Both the position numbers and the translations under genes were made by a program. A stretch of 64,000 nt of DNA, taken from positions 3,104,501 through 3,168,500 of the forward strand of contig NZ_CP040396.1 of assembly GCF_005577435.1 (NCBI RefSeq), in the 5' to 3' direction. Below are positions 31,774 through 43,605 of this stretch, in pieces. The stretch is from Paenibacillus algicola. Its GTDB lineage: Bacteria > Bacillota > Bacilli > Paenibacillales > Paenibacillaceae. Below the pieces are notes generated by a model, which was not told the DNA's origin, did not search any database, and saw only the letters and a program-made list of their open reading frames with translations. Positions within the stretch are counted from its first letter, which is position 1, and the number at the start of each line of letters is the position of its first letter.

Positions 31774-31813
31774 CATACATGCTTCCATATCAAAGTGAAG
31801 GGTGGTGCTCCTA

Positions 31814-32650
31814 ATGAGCTTCAGAGTGAAGAAGCAATGGCTCCTTGCCCGGCTGTATGAGCCGGATCTTGTCATTGTGGATTGTCGATTTGCATTGGGG
31901 AAGGCCGATGCTGGCCGGCATGCTTACGAGGAGTCCCATATTCCACGGGCCGTTTATTTGGATCTGGAAAGGAATTTGTCTGCTCCGGTGACAGACCACG
32001 GCGGCAGACACCCTCTGCCAGATGCGGAGCACATGGCGAAGGTATTCGGCCAGGCCGGAATAAGTCGTGACAGCCGCGTCGTCATTTACGATGACCAGAA
32101 CGGCATGGTCGCAAGCCGCCTTTGGTGGATGCTGCGATTCACAGGTCATCAACAGACCTATGTGCTGGAGGAAGGCTTTACCGCCTGGAGTCAGGCTGGG
32201 TACCCGGTCACGGCCGATCTGCCGGTCGTCATACCGGCGACCTATGACGTGGAGCTTCAGGGTGAGATGGTGGCTGACGTGGAGCAGGTCCGTAAGGCCT
32301 CCCTCACCGGCAGCGCCACCCTGATCGATTCCCGCGAGCCGAGCCGCTATCTCGGCCTGGAAGAGCCCATTGATGCAGCAGCCGGCCACATTCCAGGAGC
32401 CGTCAACTACTTCTGGAAAGACCTGCTCACGCAGCAGGGCTCCTGGAAGAGCCCGGAGGAGTGGTCCAACCACTTCCAGGAGCTCCCGAAGGACCAGGAG
32501 CTTATCATCTACTGCGGCTCCGGCGTATCCGCCTGCCCCAACGTCCTGGCCCTCCTGGAATCCGGCTTCACCCACGTGAAGCTGTATCCGGGAAGCTGGA
32601 GCGACTGGATTAGCTATGCGGGGAATACGGTGGCTACGGGAGAGGAATAG
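31814..32650 (+). CDS. Two-domain rhodanese sulfurtransferase (SseA-like)
   Basis: 278 residues from ATG 31814 (AAGGGTGG upstream). The N-terminal rhodanese domain is inactive-like (no Cys in the loop). The C-terminal domain has the active-site loop YCGSGVSAC, with Cys as the persulfide carrier; CGSGV resembles thiosulfate/3-mercaptopyruvate sulfurtransferases. It ends with GSWSDWISYAGNTVATGEE. Those last 19 codons and the stop lie in a 130-base segment repeated at 43031, beyond a 10.3-kb accessory island. The gene therefore marks the insertion point of the island and is itself intact. Confidence 0.85.
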   Translation: MSFRVKKQWLLARLYEPDLVIVDCRFALGKADAGRHAYEESHIPRAVYLDLERNLSAPVTDHGGRHPLPDAEHMAKVFGQAGISRDSRVVIYDDQNGMVASRLWWMLRFTGHQQTYVLEEGFTAWSQAGYPVTADLPVVIPATYDVELQGEMVADVEQVRKASLTGSATLIDSREPSRYLGLEEPIDAAAGHIPGAVNYFWKDLLTQQGSWKSPEEWSNHFQELPKDQELIIYCGSGVSACPNVLALLESGFTHVKLYPGSWSDWISYAGNTVATGEE

Positions 32651-32723
32651 TTTGAAGCGTAAGCTGGAATGTAGCATTGATTTCGAAGTACATCGCTCAT
32701 GTGACGATGTACTTCTTTGTGCT
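32594..32723. repeat. Left copy of the 130-bp direct repeat flanking the island
   Basis: It begins inside the sulfurtransferase gene (AGCTGGAGCGACTGG) and ends at TTCTTTGTGCT. Aligned by eye with 43031-43160 it has 126 identities in 130 bases, no gaps. The two copies are 10,437 bases apart. It contains the gene's stop codon and a hairpin. Confidence 0.92.
32685..32719 (+). terminator. Terminator-like hairpin after the sulfurtransferase gene
   Basis: GAAGTACATCG and CGATGTACTTC form a perfect 11-base stem with a 9-base loop, followed by TTTGT. The copy at the other end of the island has one mismatch in the stem. Confidence 0.65.
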
Positions 32724-33013: not shown

Positions 33014-33979
33014 TCAACGTGTATGAGAAGATATATCTAGCAATTTATCGTCAATCAATCGATCAATTTCAGGGAATATGGTTTTCTGAATGTTTTTGGC
33101 TGCTTGAACTTGTCCTTTTATAGATCGAAGCTTTTTTATCCTCTTACTTATTTCACGCGGATTGTATGTATATAATCTTTCTTTCTCAGCCATAGATCCT
33201 GTATATATTTTTTCTCGAAGCCTGTTAGGAACAGTTAATGCGTGTTCTTTTGTTATGACTACACCTGTAACTAACTTGAAGTCTTCTTTGGAAAAATATT
33301 TAACTTTTTTATATTTTGGTCTGTGACCATATTTTCTTAACACAATATCGACTTCATTAGCTAATGCTTTTGGATTAAAGGATGTTTTGCTGGAAAAAGT
33401 CATATCATCTACATACAAAGTAAATATAGAGTTAAATCGTTGGGAAATTTCTTTGAGTTCCGTAAACATATCAAAATAGGCGTAATAGGCAAGCATTTGG
33501 CTAGTGGGGCAACCAGTGGGGATTTTGTTATCGAAAGTGATAATATCAGTTAGTATACAAGCAACATCTTTTGAGGTCTGTAGCATTTTTATGAAAAAAT
33601 TGTATACATACTCTCTTTTGCAGTTATCATAAAACTTTCGAATATCGATTGTTAGAAAGTAATCGGAGTGTTGGTGGGTCAAGGCGTTATTTAAATAACT
33701 TTTTCCTTTTTCTCCAGAGATGAGATAGTCAGGACGCTTTACTTTTTCTAGGAGCCTAAGAATTCTTTTTTGAAGCTTTTTAAGTTCCGCTTTTGGTGCT
33801 GTTATTAATCTTGGATCACCATCGTTTTTTTGTAGAGAGAATGAATGATATAGGGTGATGTTAGAGATGGTTTTCAGTTTTTCATAATCAATCTTTAAAT
33901 AATATGCTAACTTTCGTTTACTTTTACATTTGTATAAAGCACATTGGTCAAGTTCATGTTTCTTCCTTATTTGTGTCAT
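33014..33979 (-). CDS. Retron reverse transcriptase
   Basis: 321 residues from ATG 33979 (GAGAGGG 7 bases upstream; an ATG two codons earlier abuts the site). Retron hallmarks are visible: NALTH (the NAxxH motif, near residue 98), LTIDIRKFYDN (motif A Asp), PTGCPTSQ, the catalytic YVDD near residue 190 (YVDD instead of the usual YADD) and LVTGVVI (the VTG motif, near residue 238). There is no maturase or endonuclease domain, so it is not a group II intron protein. The gene overlaps the XRE gene by 26 bases. It should make msDNA from the structured RNA encoded upstream. Confidence 0.88.
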   Translation of the reverse strand: MTQIRKKHELDQCALYKCKSKRKLAYYLKIDYEKLKTISNITLYHSFSLQKNDGDPRLITAPKAELKKLQKRILRLLEKVKRPDYLISGEKGKSYLNNALTHQHSDYFLTIDIRKFYDNCKREYVYNFFIKMLQTSKDVACILTDIITFDNKIPTGCPTSQMLAYYAYFDMFTELKEISQRFNSIFTLYVDDMTFSSKTSFNPKALANEVDIVLRKYGHRPKYKKVKYFSKEDFKLVTGVVITKEHALTVPNRLREKIYTGSMAEKERLYTYNPREISKRIKKLRSIKGQVQAAKNIQKTIFPEIDRLIDDKLLDISSHTR

Positions 33980-34271
33980 CGTCATCCCTCTCTTTAGACA
34001 TAAAGTTAATAAAACGCATCATAAGTTTTTTGACAAATTCTTGAGAATTACTGGTTTTTGATGCATCATTATAATCTTCACTTAAGAGTATGAGAGAAGA
34101 AAGTTTTATTCCATAAATATCTGAATATTTTTGAAGTATTTCAAGAGAAGGTTGTTTTTTATTATTTTCAATTTCAGATAAATAACTTTTGGAAATACCC
34201 AATTTTAGACTCATCTCAGTTGCGTTGTATCCATATATTGTTCGCGTCCGTTTGAGCACTTCTCCAATCAT
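33954..34271 (-). CDS. XRE-family helix-turn-helix protein of the retron operon
   Basis: 105 residues from ATG 34271 (AAAGGA upstream). An N-terminal HTH (TEMSLKLGISKSYLSEIENNKKQPS) fills residues 10-60. The C-terminal tail is helical and acidic. It lies between a small hydrophobic peptide gene and the reverse transcriptase gene, overlapping the latter, so it is part of the retron unit. As I recall, one described retron class (type VI) pairs the RT with an HTH protein; whether this belongs to that class needs a profile search. It could repress the operon or act as antitoxin. Confidence 0.8.
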   Translation of the reverse strand: MIGEVLKRTRTIYGYNATEMSLKLGISKSYLSEIENNKKQPSLEILQKYSDIYGIKLSSLILLSEDYNDASKTSNSQEFVKKLMMRFINFMSKERDDDDTNKEET

Positions 34272-34336
34272 TTTTATTACATCCTTTCGGGTGAAACTAA
34301 AGTAAATTAGGTAGGCTTCCCGCACGCCAGTACTTA

Positions 34337-34519
34337 TCATTTCTTAAAGAATTCAAGGATAATGTGCGCAATCTTGAGTAAAACAAGAATGAGTTCCAAC
34401 GCCTTCATAACAAAGCGGAATGTTTTACGGCGCATAAAAGCACGTATCTTTGAGAGAACTCTTTTAAAAACTTTAAGTACCTTCGGGATGTCCTGCGTGA
34501 ACAACGATTTTTTGCACAT
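34337..34519 (-). CDS. Small cationic hydrophobic peptide (60 aa), candidate retron toxin
   Basis: Start at ATG 34519 with AAAGGAG exactly 7 bases upstream. The first 37 residues are strongly basic (KVFKRVLSKIRAFMRRKTFR). The C-terminal half is a hydrophobic or amphipathic helix (LELILVLLKIAHIILEFF) ending in KK. This is the shape of membrane-acting type I toxins. It is first in the retron operon, between the candidate msr-msd RNA and the XRE gene. I recognise no family. It could be the effector held in check by the RT-msDNA complex, or a leader peptide. Function is inference only. Confidence 0.6.
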   Translation of the reverse strand: MCKKSLFTQDIPKVLKVFKRVLSKIRAFMRRKTFRFVMKALELILVLLKIAHIILEFFKK

Positions 34520-34597
34520 GTGCATTCTCCTTTTAAGAACTAAGAAGATTTTTGGCTTAGTTCTCTCCCTAAAAAGAAGATGGTGCACACAGGACGC

Positions 34598-34782
34598 CTA
34601 CCTAATTCATTCTGCACCGCGCGCAGCTCCCAGCGCGCGGTGGGGAAGAACGGGTGTCACCACACGCCTGCCCTATTTTGGTAGAATACTTTAAAAGTAT
34701 TCCTCGAGTGTAAACACTCCAGTTGGTGGGAAATGACCTGTTGACTCTATTAAAAATAGTCAACGACTCGCTGTATTAGTAG
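34598..34782 (-). ncRNA. Candidate retron msr-msd RNA
   Basis: About 185 bases between the promoter and the peptide gene hold four hairpins on the transcribed strand: GTTGACTAT/ATAGAGTCAAC (34740-34764), GAGTG/CACTC (34706-34719), GAATACT/AGTATTC (34684-34702) and a perfect 10-base GC stem CACCGCGCGC/GCGCGCGGTG (34615-34642), which is the best msd candidate. CTACTAAT at the 5' end can pair with ATTAGGTAG at the 3' end with one bulge, as a1/a2 repeats do, and AGC follows the 5' arm, as at known priming guanosines. Exact ends and the branching G are uncertain. Confidence 0.6.
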
Positions 34783-34809
34783 AATACTATTGTTCACGAT
34801 TAAAGTCAA
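34781..34809 (-). promoter_or_regulatory. Sigma-A promoter of the retron RNA/operon
   Basis: On the minus strand TTGACT, 17 bases, TATTCT. It places the transcription start near the 5' arm of the candidate msr-msd RNA. Confidence 0.65.
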
Positions 34810-34884
34810 TAGTTCGCAAATAGCGAATTAGTATAATCATGGTACTTCTACAAGGATCTGTTTCTTCACCGACTTTGTAGTCTA

Positions 34885-39694: not shown

Positions 39695-39926
39695 TAATTT
39701 TATTTGTCAGTTACGGTTCAACTTAATACTTAAAAGTAGTATAAGTTAAAGCTTAGGTATTTAGCAGGTTTCTTTAAAAGATGACTAGAATTAATATCCC
39801 AATATAGAATTTTTCTTGTTGATTCCATTTGGTAGATTTAGAGGATTTTGATGATCATTGTCGAAGATAAAATTTAGAAGTGCTGCTGGAAGCAGTAAGG
39901 AATGGTTTGGGAGCGGAGCGATAGTG

Positions 39927-41456
39927 ATGAAGGTAACGTTAGACCAATTCAAGAAGTGTTTATTCCATAGAAATCTTGAAGTGATGAACTTCGAAGATCT
40001 TTCCTGTAGAATCCGAGGATTGCATAAAGATGAAGAAATTTGTAAATCGGATACTCAGGAGACATTCGATTCGTTGTTGGAGCTATATGCCCACTTCTAT
40101 AGCATAATGGAGGCCAATCTGCACATTCTTGGAACTGCATTGAACTTTCAGGAGGACTTGCGAAAGCGTCGGGTTGAGTGTGAGTCAAGCGTGGAGCGCA
40201 AGTGGATAAGGCATCTGACAGAATACGCCTATATTTCAGTCGAAGATTTCCATCCAGAGTCATTAAGCTTGATCCAGGGGGATTTCCAGGATGCTTCAAC
40301 GCGGGAGCAGCTTTTACTGCTGCTTTATGTATGGGTGAGGCGTCTGGATTTATTTTTGGGTTACATGGATTACCGCTCTACAGCCACGCAAGGACTTTTT
40401 CCTTATGAGGTCAGTCGGGGCCGGTTAATAAAAAAATATCGAAACACCTTAGGTCTTCATGTGCAGGAACAGACGCATAAATCATTAACCGATCCCAACT
40501 ACTTGGACTTGCGGAATGATATTAGCTCGGTGTTTCTCATTCCCCGAACGTCAGATAGCTACAAGGTCAAGCCGGTTTCCGTGAGTGACGCCCAGCACAT
40601 CCAGATGGTCAATTTAACTAAGGATTGGGACCATGTCCGGTTCGGTTTTTTTCCTGGGCTACTGGAGAGCTTCGATGAGTATGATTGGCATTCGGAAGAC
40701 CGCGGCCACGGAGAGACTCTGTTTCATTTTAAAGAGGTTCAGCGGGAGTCCTACCGGGAATCTGTACTGCAGGCAGTTCAAGCTCTTGCGGAGCGGATGC
40801 CCCATTTTATAATGCTGCCAGAACTAACGACGCCCTTTGGGTTACAAGACCAAATAGGACAACTATTCTCTTCCGGCAAAGCGGACGGGTTAGTGATGCC
40901 TGGAAGTTTCCATGTCTCCGGAGAAGAACTAGGAGATGGACATGAACCTGGAAGGGTCTACAATTACTCGCAGGTATGGTCTAAAAATGGGCGTAAGTTG
41001 GTAGGCGTCTACAAGATGAATCGGTTTGAATTCACCGCTAAAGAGCCTTGCTGCGAATCCCTGAAGCCATACTTAAAAAGCAAAGGTGTGGAACAAATTG
41101 ATTATACGCACAGGACCCTTCAATTGATAGAGACACCTATGGGGCTTGTGGCGGTACTTATCTGTGTGGATGCCATCGTGGATCAGGTGGAGCAAATTTT
41201 AAAGGATTACCATGTTGCATTGGTGTTCGTAATGGCCATGACTGGTAACCCTGGAGGAAGCCACTTTGAGGAGAAAATGAAGCGGTTGGGCAAGTGCAAC
41301 CAAGCGGTGACTGTTGTATGTAATAACCCACTGGGGCTTCAGCTTACCGGCAAAAGTCATACTGTTGTAGTGTACTTCCCGTTACCAAATAAGGTCTATA
41401 CTGATGAGAGACGGGATTTTATCATCGATGTCGGTGAAATGTACAGAAACGGTTGA
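39927..41456 (+). CDS. Nitrilase-superfamily protein with a large helical N-terminal domain (509 aa)
   Basis: Start at ATG 39927, with GGAG 8 bases upstream; a longer frame from 39858 lacks a site. Residues 1-230 are mainly helical and unrecognised (LLELYAHFYSIMEANLHILG, QLLLLLYVWVRRLDLFLGYM). The C-terminal 270 residues carry a nitrilase (carbon-nitrogen hydrolase) fold with the full triad: Glu299 in MLPELT, Lys363 in YKMNRF and Cys413 in LICVDAI. Such enzymes hydrolyse nitriles or amides. Fused to a helical domain in a defence-rich island it could be an effector or signal-processing enzyme. I do not know a named system with this arrangement; a nitrilase domain does occur fused to RTs in the DRT1 defence system. 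Confidence 0.72.
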   Translation: MKVTLDQFKKCLFHRNLEVMNFEDLSCRIRGLHKDEEICKSDTQETFDSLLELYAHFYSIMEANLHILGTALNFQEDLRKRRVECESSVERKWIRHLTEYAYISVEDFHPESLSLIQGDFQDASTREQLLLLLYVWVRRLDLFLGYMDYRSTATQGLFPYEVSRGRLIKKYRNTLGLHVQEQTHKSLTDPNYLDLRNDISSVFLIPRTSDSYKVKPVSVSDAQHIQMVNLTKDWDHVRFGFFPGLLESFDEYDWHSEDRGHGETLFHFKEVQRESYRESVLQAVQALAERMPHFIMLPELTTPFGLQDQIGQLFSSGKADGLVMPGSFHVSGEELGDGHEPGRVYNYSQVWSKNGRKLVGVYKMNRFEFTAKEPCCESLKPYLKSKGVEQIDYTHRTLQLIETPMGLVAVLICVDAIVDQVEQILKDYHVALVFVMAMTGNPGGSHFEEKMKRLGKCNQAVTVVCNNPLGLQLTGKSHTVVVYFPLPNKVYTDERRDFIIDVGEMYRNG

Positions 41457-41554
41457 TAAAACGTAATTTATTGCATAGAATAAAGGAGAAGTGAAGTATC
41501 GGTGTAATGAATAAAGGGTAACATGTAATAATAGTGAAGTGGGGGTGTTGGAAA

Positions 41555-42364
41555 GTGAAGTTACTGGAGCATGCACTGCGTGATTTGAATACGGATTTAT
41601 CAGCGGATAATCCCCTATTGGATAGAAGGTTAACGACAGTACAAGATTATATTTGCCATTATGTGAACGCCCGCGATTATGATCGGTTGGTGGAGATTCG
41701 GGAGAGCTTGCTAGAGCTTGTTCAAGAATTGAATCATAAGGATCTACTGAACTTCCGTCTGGGGAGAATCTCCGCGTTGACTGAGGTAATCTGGGGGATT
41801 ACAGCGGATCATCGACTTATGAGCGATGCTTCCGTGTTGGCGCCGAAGGAGCAAGCTTTTATCAGCAGTCTTCACCAACACAAGGAAATGACCAATTCCG
41901 AATTATCCAAACTATTCTATATGGAGCCTAATCATACTAGCAATGTATTGGCCAAGTTACGCAAGCTAGATTTTGTATTCGTCAGACCCTCCGGCAAAGA
42001 ACGATGGTACTCCTTGACGCCGATCGGTGAGAATGTAGCCCGTAAGTTGGATGAAGAACAGCAGCGTCAACAGCGAAAAAAAGTGGAGATAATAGCCGAA
42101 GATGACAATGCGCACGAGGTAATCCGACCAGAGCAGATGATGTTGTATGAAGAGGAAAAGTCGTATTTCAGGGAGCAAGGAACTTATCAAGACTCAGTCG
42201 TGTTAATGAATACATGGGGAGGGGAGGGAAGGAATTATGTCAAACCAAGAATGCATGGAAAAGGTAAACCAATGGTTCAGATCATTGGAAATGCCGCTTC
42301 AAGAGCTAGTGATTGCGAAGATCGGTTCTGGCAAAGAATCGATTTTGAACTATGTAGAGAGTAA
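41555..42364 (+). CDS. Winged-helix protein of the nitrilase operon
   Basis: About 269 residues from GTG 41555 (GGGGGTG 8 bases upstream). An N-terminal helical region is followed by a MarR-like winged helix at residues 92-160 (APKEQAFISSLHQHKEMTNSELS, HTSNVLAKLRKLDFV, RWYSLTPIGENVARKL). The tail is charged. The last 43 codons overlap the next gene in another frame for 128 bases, an unusually long overlap that could mean the C-terminus has been extended by a frameshift. A regulator of this operon, or a DNA-binding subunit of a three-part system. Confidence 0.65.
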   Translation: MKLLEHALRDLNTDLSADNPLLDRRLTTVQDYICHYVNARDYDRLVEIRESLLELVQELNHKDLLNFRLGRISALTEVIWGITADHRLMSDASVLAPKEQAFISSLHQHKEMTNSELSKLFYMEPNHTSNVLAKLRKLDFVFVRPSGKERWYSLTPIGENVARKLDEEQQRQQRKKVEIIAEDDNAHEVIRPEQMMLYEEEKSYFREQGTYQDSVVLMNTWGGEGRNYVKPRMHGKGKPMVQIIGNAASRASDCEDRFWQRIDFELCRE

Positions 42365-42926
42365 GTTTCCAGATATTCTGGAGCCACTCCGGACGGTTTT
42401 GTCAGATCTGGAGTCTCGCTCTAAACATAAAAATTCCTTGGAGTTAGCAGAGGAATTGGAGAAAGAGGGTTTTCAGGAACGACTGTTTCTCAACAAGTTG
42501 TTAGAAATGACTGGTATCCTTTTGAAGCCCTACAAGGATGCAAGCTATCTGCGTAGTCTGGAGGTGTCTGAATACCGAAGGTTCATCCGAACCGTCATTA
42601 CGGACGTATATGTAGACCGAAAGTATATCACCCCCAAGAGGTTGATTCAGGAGTACACGACGGACCAACCGGAAGAATGTAAGCGGGCGTATGCCGTTAT
42701 CCGGTTCATCTTAAATTCCTTCTACAGACATAATTCCTCTTTTGAAATTGTGGAGAATTATATGAGTAAGCGGCTGGATTTGCCAATGGATAAGGTTGAA
42801 GATTTCATTCGGGAGATGGAAAAAAACCGGGATGGGCTGGAGCGATACTTCCTGCTCGAGCAGCTATCCAAGTTGAACGACACTCTCAACGAACTTGCCG
42901 CTGGAGTGGAAGACGATGATGAATAA
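42237..42926 (+). CDS. Hypothetical helical protein of the nitrilase operon (229 aa)
   Basis: It has a strong ribosome site (GGGAGGGAAGGA) just before ATG 42237. The protein is almost entirely helical, charged, with no signal or membrane segment and no recognised motif; it ends in acidic VEDDDE. It follows the winged-helix gene with overlap and is closed by a terminator at 42946, so the three genes form one transcript. Its function is unknown; a structural or adaptor role is only a guess. Confidence 0.65.
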   Translation: MSNQECMEKVNQWFRSLEMPLQELVIAKIGSGKESILNYVESKFPDILEPLRTVLSDLESRSKHKNSLELAEELEKEGFQERLFLNKLLEMTGILLKPYKDASYLRSLEVSEYRRFIRTVITDVYVDRKYITPKRLIQEYTTDQPEECKRAYAVIRFILNSFYRHNSSFEIVENYMSKRLDLPMDKVEDFIREMEKNRDGLERYFLLEQLSKLNDTLNELAAGVEDDDE

Positions 42927-43030: not shown

Positions 43031-43160
43031 AGCTGGAGCGACTGGATTAGCTATGAGGGGAATGCGGTGGCTACGGGAGAGGAATAGTTTGAAGCGTAAG
43101 CTGGAATGTAGCATTGATTTCGAAGTACATCGCTCATGTGGCGTTGTACTTCTTTGTGCT
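43031..43160. repeat. Right copy of the 130-bp direct repeat
   Basis: Matches 32594-32723 with four substitutions. It carries an orphan copy of the last 19 codons and the stop of the sulfurtransferase gene, without the gene. The island ends here. Confidence 0.92.
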
Positions 43161-43318: not shown

Positions 43319-43384
43319 TAACTAGGCATGTGGAACGACTTGCAAGGGTGGTCGGCTACCTCTCTATAGAAGGGAGGGATGCTC

Positions 43385-43492
43385 ATGGAGGTTAAGGATG
43401 CACTGACATTGATGATTAGTTTTGGTGCGCTCATTGTAGCGCTGCTTACGCTGGTCGTCGCCATTGTCACTGCATTGAACCAAAAGAAATAG
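43385..43492 (+). CDS. Holin-like toxin peptide (35 aa), type I toxin-antitoxin type
   Basis: The frame from ATG 43385 encodes MEVKDALTLMISFGALIV, a long hydrophobic run and a tail of QKK, the pattern of the putative holin-like toxin family in Bacillus and Paenibacillus. One membrane helix is predicted. GGGAGGG lies upstream. Two hairpins with GACCGC/GCGGTC stems follow, as in loci with an antisense RNA antitoxin. The peptide probably damages the membrane when the RNA is lost. Confidence 0.72.
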   Translation: MEVKDALTLMISFGALIVALLTLVVAIVTALNQKK

Positions 43493-43605
43493 ACCGCCCC
43501 CCTGCAAGGTAGCGGTCTATTACTGATCGTTTCACCGAAGCCGACCGCCTTTGAAGCGGTCTATCGTGCCAAGGAGTCGTGTTCGCGCACGGCTCCTTCT
43601 TTAGT
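43491..43605. ncRNA. Hairpin region downstream of the toxin, probable antitoxin RNA/terminators
   Basis: AGACCGC/GCGGTCT (43491-43518) and GACCGC/GCGGTC (43543-43561) repeat the same stem. GGAGTCGTG/CACGGCTCC followed by TTCTTTAGTTTT (43573-43605) ends the toxin mRNA. On the minus strand the first stem is followed by ATTTCTTTT, which could end an antisense RNA running toward the toxin gene. The antitoxin promoter was not located. Confidence 0.45.

What the first reader, a model, noticed from the sequence alone, without database searches (positions are those of the whole stretch)
33014..34809. A retron operon: candidate msr-msd RNA, basic peptide, XRE protein and RT with YVDD
The RT has NAxxH and VTG motifs that separate retrons from other RTs, but YVDD rather than YADD. 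The upstream 185-base RNA has its own promoter, four hairpins and a possible a1/a2 pairing. Known retrons are RT-RNA-effector defence systems. Here the effector is not one of the well-known ones; an XRE protein and a 60-residue cationic peptide take its place.
Basis: partly seen in the sequence, partly recalled or inferred. Interest (0 to 1): 0.8.

Follow-up and report, generated by a model that had tools for sequence, protein, structure and literature searches.

The report
Type VI retron with toxin-mRNA pairing
This is a known class of bacterial reverse-transcriptase element (a type VI retron) whose RNA also forms the front end of a small membrane-peptide gene's message, and the part of the RNA that should be copied into DNA first can instead base-pair with that message, which suggests that DNA synthesis and toxin production are linked by one RNA switch.

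Summary
On the minus strand lie an operator, a promoter, a structured RNA, a 60-aa cationic/hydrophobic peptide, an XRE protein and a reverse transcriptase (RT).

The arrangement is a type VI retron, a published class: RT_VI 1e-88 and HTH_VI 9.5e-31, within a supported type VI RT group. XRE plus a small protein is the class norm. YVDD is usual here, though my collection scans favoured it.

What appears new is in the RNA. The 3' arm of msd and the a2 segment are complementary to the toxin message at two places. Segment C pairs with toxin codons 7-10. Segment M pairs with an element D just after the toxin stop codon. In 21 Firmicute loci these helices are 96-98% paired, and 14 of 22 pairs show double changes. 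In an 11-locus proteobacterial/phage set all 8 C:ORF pairs do.

The window RNA alone is predicted to form a1:a2; with the toxin ORF present, C:ORF and M:D instead. A conserved operator, TTCGC-N5-GCGAA, is intact in 31 of 61 loci.

I propose that the retron RNA holds the toxin message closed. Toxicity, msDNA and direction of control are untested.

The parts
34813..34827 (-). Probable operator of the XRE protein, TTCGCTATTTGCGAA, just upstream of the -35 box
   Evidence: TTCGC-N5-GCGAA is perfect in 31 of 61 non-redundant type VI loci, 0.0 expected from shuffles; 46 of 61 with up to 2 mismatches, 5.1 expected. The own genome has 5 such sites, against 4 for the control pattern, so the pattern alone is at chance genome-wide; this is the only one with this spacer. 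That the XRE protein binds it is inference.
34781..34809 (-). Promoter TTGACT-17-TATTCT
   Evidence: position conserved in homologues by eye
34585..34776 (-). Retron RNA (msr-msd): a1 34771-34776, SL1 34740-34764, SL2 34706-34720, SL3 34684-34702, msd hairpin 34616-34641, a2 34587-34592
   Evidence: folds z -4.24; SL2 and SL3 conserved with compensatory changes; coordinates
34596..34608 (-). Element M, 3' arm of msd, GAAUUAGGUAGGC; pairs with D
   Evidence: 13 pairs, 98.5% of cells paired, 7 pairs with double changes in 21 loci; window duplex score 47.0, 0 of 100 shuffles
34586..34594 (-). Element C (overlaps a2), UCCUGUGUG; pairs with toxin codons 7-10
   Evidence: 9 pairs, 96.3% paired, 7 with double changes; independent set 8 of 8
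34527..34579 (-). Leader hairpin that sequesters the toxin SD
   Evidence: SD predicted 0.01 unpaired in the window and 0.12 on average in 21 loci
34337..34519 (-). 60-aa peptide gene (probable membrane-acting toxin), MCKKSLFTQD...LLKIAHIILEFFKK, net charge +13
   Evidence: a small cationic/hydrophobic ORF at the same place was picked by hand in 67 of 102 loci with an RT hit; 61 representatives: 31-87 aa, median charge +7, 59 of 61 at least +2. The window peptide has no match in Pfam (E up to 1), PADLOC (0.01) or PHROGs (0.1), nor the 21-row profile in the PDB (E up to 1). NCBIfam was not searched.
34491..34499 (-). ORF contact site, CACGCAGGA, complementary to C
34304..34316 (-). Element D, GCCUACCUAAUUU, between toxin stop and XRE start, complementary to M
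33954..34271 (-). XRE-type helix-turn-helix protein (HTH_VI), 105 aa
   Evidence: PADLOC HTH_VI 9.5e-31 over 1-91 of 92; Pfam HTH_3 1.4e-12
33014..33985 (-). Type VI retron reverse transcriptase, 323 aa
   Evidence: PADLOC RT_VI 1e-88, next family 1.1e-42; type VI group 99/94; the 12 PDB sequences matched at E up to 1e-5 are named retron enzymes or RNA-directed DNA polymerases, best Ec86 2.4e-16

Best explanation
The locus is a type VI retron. One promoter, controlled by the XRE protein through the TTCGC-N5-GCGAA operator, makes a transcript that begins with the retron RNA and runs on through a small cationic membrane-peptide toxin, the XRE gene and the RT gene. The 3' arm of msd (M) and the a2/C segment have two alternative partners. 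When the RNA ends after a2, a2 pairs with a1 and the RNA is a template for RT, which should copy M first. When transcription goes on, C pairs with toxin codons 7-10 and M with D behind the toxin stop codon, giving a closed, translationally silent toxin message with its SD also hidden in a hairpin. Reverse transcription and the closed toxin message thus compete for the same RNA segment, so events that change RT or msDNA (for example phage infection) would change toxin output. Shown by sequence: the parts, the operator conservation and the covarying pairings. Predicted: the fold switch. Inferred: one transcript, operator binding, toxicity of the peptide, translational silencing, and that reverse transcription acts on the lock.
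For: Type. Peptide, HTH and RT in the same order in Bacillota, Actinomycetota, Pseudomonadota and Bdellovibrionota loci (HTH beside RT in 97 of 102 loci with an RT hit). Pairing, covariation: (45 double-change cells against 10.7 shuffled, 0 of 500; slid registers 24-47% paired against 97.6%). RNAalifold, given no structure, returned both helices. Pairing, position: the M:D best duplex lies 60-90 nt before the start codon in 41 of 61 loci against 6.6 if uniform; 28 of the 29 loci in which at most 5 of 100 shuffles do as well lie there. C:ORF: 25 of 61 loci have at most 10 of 200 shuffles as good; the best duplex is at the expected place on both sides in 33 of 61 against 4.2 expected. Own partner in the top 10% of foreign partners: C:ORF 19/21, 5/5, 28/34; M:D 18/21, 5/5, 14/34 (L065 left out). 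A third segment pair tested the same way was mostly negative (0/21, 3/5, 0/34), so the test is not trivially positive. G-U pairs in the helices favour RNA pairing over a DNA repeat. Window fold: a1:a2 probability 0.98 for the short RNA, 0.00 in the long one, where C:ORF is 0.91 and M:D 0.98; long RNA z -7.14. Operator.
Against: Blocking C and M in the fold calculation does not open the toxin SD (mean unpaired 0.12 to 0.15; 0.26 if the 5' part is removed), so freeing C and M alone may not start translation. M:D is weak outside the main group (8 of 40 loci pass shuffles; 14 of 34). a1:a2 is only 6 bp in the main group, and outside it an automatic search found no consistent a1:a2. The switch is predicted in only part of the 21 loci: mean a1:a2 probability 0.44 for the short RNA (20 loci with a1 aligned), and C:ORF under 0.2 in 10 of 21 long RNAs. 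For 35 of 102 loci no peptide was chosen, and the peptides were picked by hand. No test of msDNA, toxicity or defence was possible. Pairing could also act in trans.
Confidence: 0.55

Rival explanations
1. Conventional retron logic: the RT-msDNA complex, perhaps with the XRE protein, binds the cationic peptide itself and keeps it harmless until a phage disturbs msDNA. The RNA pairings are a minor extra brake.
For: The start of the abstract of PMC12548924 (listing) gives as typical that the RT, RNA and RT-DNA complex sequesters the toxic effector. The peptide's N-terminal half is basic and could bind nucleic acid.
Against: It does not explain two covarying pairings with the toxin gene, kept from Bacillota to Pseudomonadota with different sequences.
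Confidence: 0.2
2. The pairings serve to keep RT off message-length transcripts: D and the ORF site cover the start point of reverse transcription, so that only short, processed retron RNA is copied and the operon message is not destroyed by RNase H.
For: C overlaps a2 and M lies next to it, where copying should begin; C:ORF and a1:a2 use the same bases.
Against: The C site lies in the toxin coding region rather than in any convenient spacer, which suggests a role in toxin translation.
Confidence: 0.2
3. M/D and C/ORF-site are inverted DNA repeats bound by the XRE protein, not RNA pairs.
For: Inverted repeats and an XRE protein in one locus.
Against: The likely XRE operator is a different, near-constant sequence, while M, C and partners differ from clade to clade; 8 of 21 loci have U-G at one M:D pair and 17 of 21 G-U at another, which a DNA repeat would not favour.
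Confidence: 0.03
4. The locus is a degraded or non-defensive element: the RT makes msDNA for another purpose and the peptide is not toxic.
For: It sits in a 10.4-kb island beside IS-type genes; one relative (L008/L082) has a broken RT frame.
Against: In the window all three genes are open and the RNA elements described are present; the peptide, operator and pairings recur over several phyla.
Confidence: 0.07

Closest known systems
Type VI retrons (Mestre et al. 2020 classification; PADLOC RT_VI and HTH_VI)
   Same: RT clade, XRE partner overlapping the RT start, small protein gene upstream, retron RNA in front
   Different: Nothing in gene content. The pairing of msd/a2 with the toxin gene and the shared operator were not seen in the listings and passages I could view; the Mestre paper itself was not held.
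Retron Ec86 (Retron-Eco1), best solved RT match
   Same: RT family; a1 followed by an AGC-type branch region (Ec86 RNA recalled)
   Different: Ec86 has a different effector protein (recalled); here a 60-aa peptide; a1:a2 here is only 6 bp
Type I toxin-antitoxin systems such as hok/sok and aapA1 (recalled, no call)
   Same: Small cationic/hydrophobic peptide, SD hidden in a hairpin, long-range pairing between 5' and 3' parts of the toxin message
   Different: Here the 5' partner is the copying start of a retron template, and a reverse transcriptase and an XRE protein belong to the operon
Retroelement of Shewanella phage MuM16-1 and P2-like phages (passages of PMC8541194)
   Same: RT, regulator, and in the P2-like phages a short protein upstream; the authors suggest type VI
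   Different: Phage-borne; no RNA analysis in the passages read

Membership tests
Type VI retron | RT of the type VI clade | tested here: met
   RT_VI 1e-88 against 1.1e-42 for the next family; 23 type VI RTs form one group, 99/94, in a 44-row tree (rows L080 and L133 are partial)
Type VI retron | XRE/HTH partner gene of the HTH_VI family next to the RT | tested here: met
   HTH_VI 9.5e-31; its 3' end overlaps the RT start
Type VI retron | Small auxiliary protein gene upstream | tested here: met
   60-aa ORF with SD; counterparts picked by hand in 67 of 102 loci with an RT hit
Type VI retron | msr-msd RNA with a1:a2 stem | tested here: met
   structure and conservation; a1:a2 itself moderate in the main group and not consistent outside it
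Type VI retron | Production of msDNA (2'-5' branched) | not testable with these tools
   needs nucleic acid extraction
Type VI retron | Anti-phage defence | not testable with these tools
   no experiment possible; the passages read in four papers report none for a system named type VI
Type I toxin-antitoxin system | Small toxic membrane peptide | tested here: inconclusive
   composition fits (charge +13, hydropathy 2.09 over 17 residues); toxicity untested
Type I toxin-antitoxin system | Antitoxin is an antisense RNA to the toxin mRNA | tested here: inconclusive
   C and M are complementary to the toxin message with covariation, but they appear to lie on the same transcript; action in trans untested
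Type I toxin-antitoxin system | Toxin SD hidden and long-range 5'-3' pairing | tested here: met
   prediction plus covariation

The most novel reading that the evidence does not exclude
Type VI retrons are RNA/DNA toggles: the retron RNA is itself the lock on the toxin message, and reverse transcription, by turning C and M into DNA and letting RNase H remove the RNA, or by msDNA invading C and M of other transcripts, is the act that changes toxin synthesis. msDNA would then be a translational switch rather than a decoy that holds an effector protein, in a class that spans several phyla.
Probability: 0.3. Interest if true: 0.9.

Novelty: new variant of a known kind. Interest (0 to 1): 0.72.

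Why it matters
How type VI retrons work, and why they carry a DNA-binding protein and a tiny peptide instead of an enzyme effector, had no answer in what I could see of the open literature. The covarying pairings give a directly testable answer: the retron template and the toxin message share one RNA segment. If right, it joins retrons to type I toxin-antitoxin systems and gives msDNA synthesis a regulatory role.

Tried and rejected
1. Third long-range contact (msr 5' part with the leader hairpin): suggested by eye, not supported (own partner in the top 10% in 0/21, 3/5, 0/34). 2. A U-tract behind D as a terminator: seen by eye in many Firmicute loci but not in several proteobacterial ones; not counted. 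3. M/D as DNA sites of the XRE protein: see rivals. 4. SD opening by freeing C and M: not supported by the fold calculation. 5. Automatic search for a1:a2 outside the main group: best partners differ from locus to locus; GAGAT:AUCUC-like pairs are seen in a few. 6. Rfam at gathering scores: one hit in the window, BsrG elsewhere, no retron family. 7. Peptide families; four PHROGs each match one of 21 members at 0.033-0.075, taken as chance. 9. First genome-contig scan with the single protein found no relative. 10. One search timed out; redone with a faster score. 11. The proteobacterial alignment A4 aligns poorly and was not folded; the smaller A5 was used, in which row L134 is out of register at the ORF site and counts as mostly unpaired. 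12. HTH_VI search of 398 genomes rings in 325 at 1e-12 because XRE proteins are common; only the best six were looked at, of which L031 and L032 have no RT seen. 13. RT_VI search of 392 genomes of the order at 1e-30 gave 25, but only the window, G282 and G377 show the peptide-HTH_VI-RT order, or for G377 HTH_VI and RT with a leader like the window's, on the stretches fetched; a stricter search of 200 relatives gave 4, three of them the HTH-less sister group. 14. Rows dropped before counts: 17 of 119 loci gave no RT hit with my ORF caller; 35 of 102 had no peptide chosen, several of them near-copies and some with a plausible peptide on a looser search; 61 of 67 remain after removing near-copies; L065 was left out because its upstream DNA looked unrelated.

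Literature: ten searches of the held library (open-licence PMC papers) showed no description of this pairing; most papers were seen only as listings with the start of the abstract. Passages were read in PMC8541194, PMC12548924, PMC8934634 and PMC9122126. Mestre et al. 2020 was not held. A type VI mechanism paper may exist unseen.

Full report
What is there. On the minus strand, from 34827 down to 33014, lie an operator-like palindrome, a sigma-70-type promoter, a structured RNA, a 60-aa peptide gene, an XRE-type gene and an RT gene. The genome is held as one contig of 4.48 Mb and appears to belong to the Paenibacillaceae: the same-family genome G282 has a contig of the same length and the same cassette as a P. 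taichungensis record. The RT occurs once in the genome.

What class it is. PADLOC gives RT_VI at 1e-88, with the next family at 1.1e-42, and HTH_VI at 9.5e-31. In a 44-row tree of RTs the 23 type VI rows form one group with support 99/94, and the window RT sits with Firmicute type VI RTs. The 12 PDB sequences matched at E up to 1e-5 are named as retron enzymes or RNA-directed DNA polymerases, Ec86 best. A paper of 2021 describes type VI retrons as RT plus DNA-binding protein plus small auxiliary protein (passages of PMC8541194). So gene content is ordinary for type VI.

Relatives. Scans with an alignment of seven RTs gave 80 loci in genome contigs (143 relatives found, 80 kept) and 31 in viral contigs; tblastn found 29 plasmid and 14 phage records, of which I fetched four. 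Of 119 loci examined, 102 gave an RT hit with my ORF caller and 97 of these have an HTH gene beside the RT. I picked a small upstream ORF in 67 of the 102 by hand from the candidates; 61 remained after near-copies were removed. These peptides have 31-87 residues (median 57), median net charge +7, 59 of 61 at least +2, and a hydrophobic stretch, mostly near the C-terminus by eye. The libraries searched do not know the peptide (NCBIfam not searched).

Operator. TTCGC-N5-GCGAA stands upstream of the promoter without mismatch in 31 of 61 loci, where shuffles give 0.0, and with up to two mismatches in 46 of 61, where shuffles give 5.1. The same TTCGCTATTTGCGAA occurs in the window, in Clostridia, in a Pseudomonas and in an Oligoflexia bacterium (with titles). 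In the own genome the bare pattern is at chance level, 5 sites against 4 for its control. Binding by the XRE protein and autoregulation are inference.

The pairings. Reading the leaders side by side showed that a segment M at the 3' end of msd is complementary to a segment D between the peptide stop codon and the XRE start. Over 61 loci, 29 have a duplex that is matched by at most 5 of 100 shuffles, and 28 of these 29 lie 60-90 nt before the peptide start; the best duplex lies there in 41 of 61 loci, 6.6 expected if uniform. All 21 loci of the main Firmicute group pass, 8 of the other 40 do. The window has the strongest (score 47.0, 0 of 100). An alignment of 21 Firmicute loci (A2) given to RNAalifold returned M:D and a second helix that I had not looked for: segment C, which overlaps a2, with toxin codons 7-10. 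Counted with controls, the two helices are 97.6% paired, 14 of 22 pairs have double changes (shuffled 4.7), 45 cells have double changes (10.7), 0 of 500 shuffles reach either; sliding the register drops pairing to 24-47%. Relatedness inflates such counts, so I tested other clades. In 11 proteobacterial or phage loci all 8 pairs of C:ORF have double changes and 90.9% of cells pair. Over all 61 loci, C:ORF is matched by at most 10 of 200 shuffles in 25, and the best leader:ORF duplex lies at the expected place on both sides in 33, 4.2 expected. Against foreign partners, C:ORF is in the top 10% in 19/21, 5/5 and 28/34 loci of the three groups, M:D in 18/21, 5/5 and 14/34. A third candidate contact, tested the same way, failed.

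What the pairings should do. In the window the short RNA (34585-34776) folds with a1:a2 closed (probability 0.98). Once the ORF contact is present a1:a2 falls to 0.01 and C:ORF rises to 0.83; in the full leader plus gene C:ORF is 0.91 and M:D 0.98 (energies). Over 21 loci (20 for a1:a2) the means are 0.44 for a1:a2 in the short RNA and 0.01 in the long one; C:ORF is 0.60 in the RNA that ends in the ORF and 0.41 in the long one; M:D is 0.91 in the long one. So M:D is a firm prediction, while the a1:a2 to C:ORF switch is clear in the window and in part of the family. The toxin SD is hidden in its own hairpin in either state (mean unpaired 0.12, or 0.15 with C and M blocked): freeing C and M is not enough on paper to start translation. 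I therefore commit to 'closed toxin message' as the likely function (0.55) and leave open what opens it. Because retron RTs copy from next to a2 (established knowledge of retrons), M would be the first part turned into DNA; in the main group C overlaps a2. In a few proteobacterial loci an a1:a2-like GAGAT:AUCUC pair lies 3' of C, so that C too would be copied there (by eye; L060, L153 and L157), but the automatic search gave other best partners in most loci of that set. Reverse transcription and toxin silencing would then compete for one segment. The direction of that effect is not known.

Membership and novelty. The locus meets the type VI features that can be tested from sequence. It resembles type I toxin-antitoxin messages in layout (hok and aapA1 recalled), but the antisense role in trans and toxicity are untested, so I do not file it there. 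I saw no description of these pairings in ten searches of the open library, mostly as listings; the founding classification paper and subscription papers were not available, so priority is unsettled.

Surroundings. The retron has 33% GC against about 48-58% on the left flank and lies in a 10.4-kb island between two 130-nt repeats, 97% identical, the first of which spans the 3' end of a sulfurtransferase-like gene; this looks like insertion of a mobile element, inferred. The names sulfurtransferase and IS transposase are by eye, not from a family search.

Noticed in passing
window 32594-32723 and 43031-43160: 130-nt direct repeat, 97% identical, duplicating the 3' end of a sulfurtransferase-like gene (31802-32650) and its downstream region; it bounds a 10.4-kb island with the retron, IS-type transposase genes and other ORFs. 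Another genome carries several copies of the same gene end a few kb apart (G357), as in an integration hotspot.
   Followed up: partly
window 43326-43595 (+): Rfam BsrG hit (56 bits, cut-off 55): a second, type I toxin-antitoxin-like locus just outside the right repeat; an ORF near 43386 encodes a small hydrophobic peptide (read).
   Followed up: no
L004 (G118), L005 (G288), L006 (G251): Sister group of the type VI RTs (100/99) with a small membrane-type protein directly before the RT and no HTH gene seen on the stretches fetched: a possible further retron type.
   Followed up: no
L008/L082 (Fontibacillus panacisegetis): Close relative with leader and HTH present but the RT frame interrupted.
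   Followed up: no
L031 (G460): HTH_VI-like gene (6.8e-26) in phage-like surroundings without an RT next to it.
   Followed up: no
L089, L090, L094, L096, L097 leaders: 5' segment CCATCC-AGAAGA complementary to the anti-SD arm of the toxin leader (TTTCTTGGATGG); in the foreign-partner test only 3 of 5 reached the top 10%.
   Followed up: partly
window 39858-42926: Three ORFs inside the same island (532, 276 and 229 aa) without a PADLOC system assignment; the second has weak CARF/Csa3-like matches (1.8e-4 and 7.1e-4).
   Followed up: no
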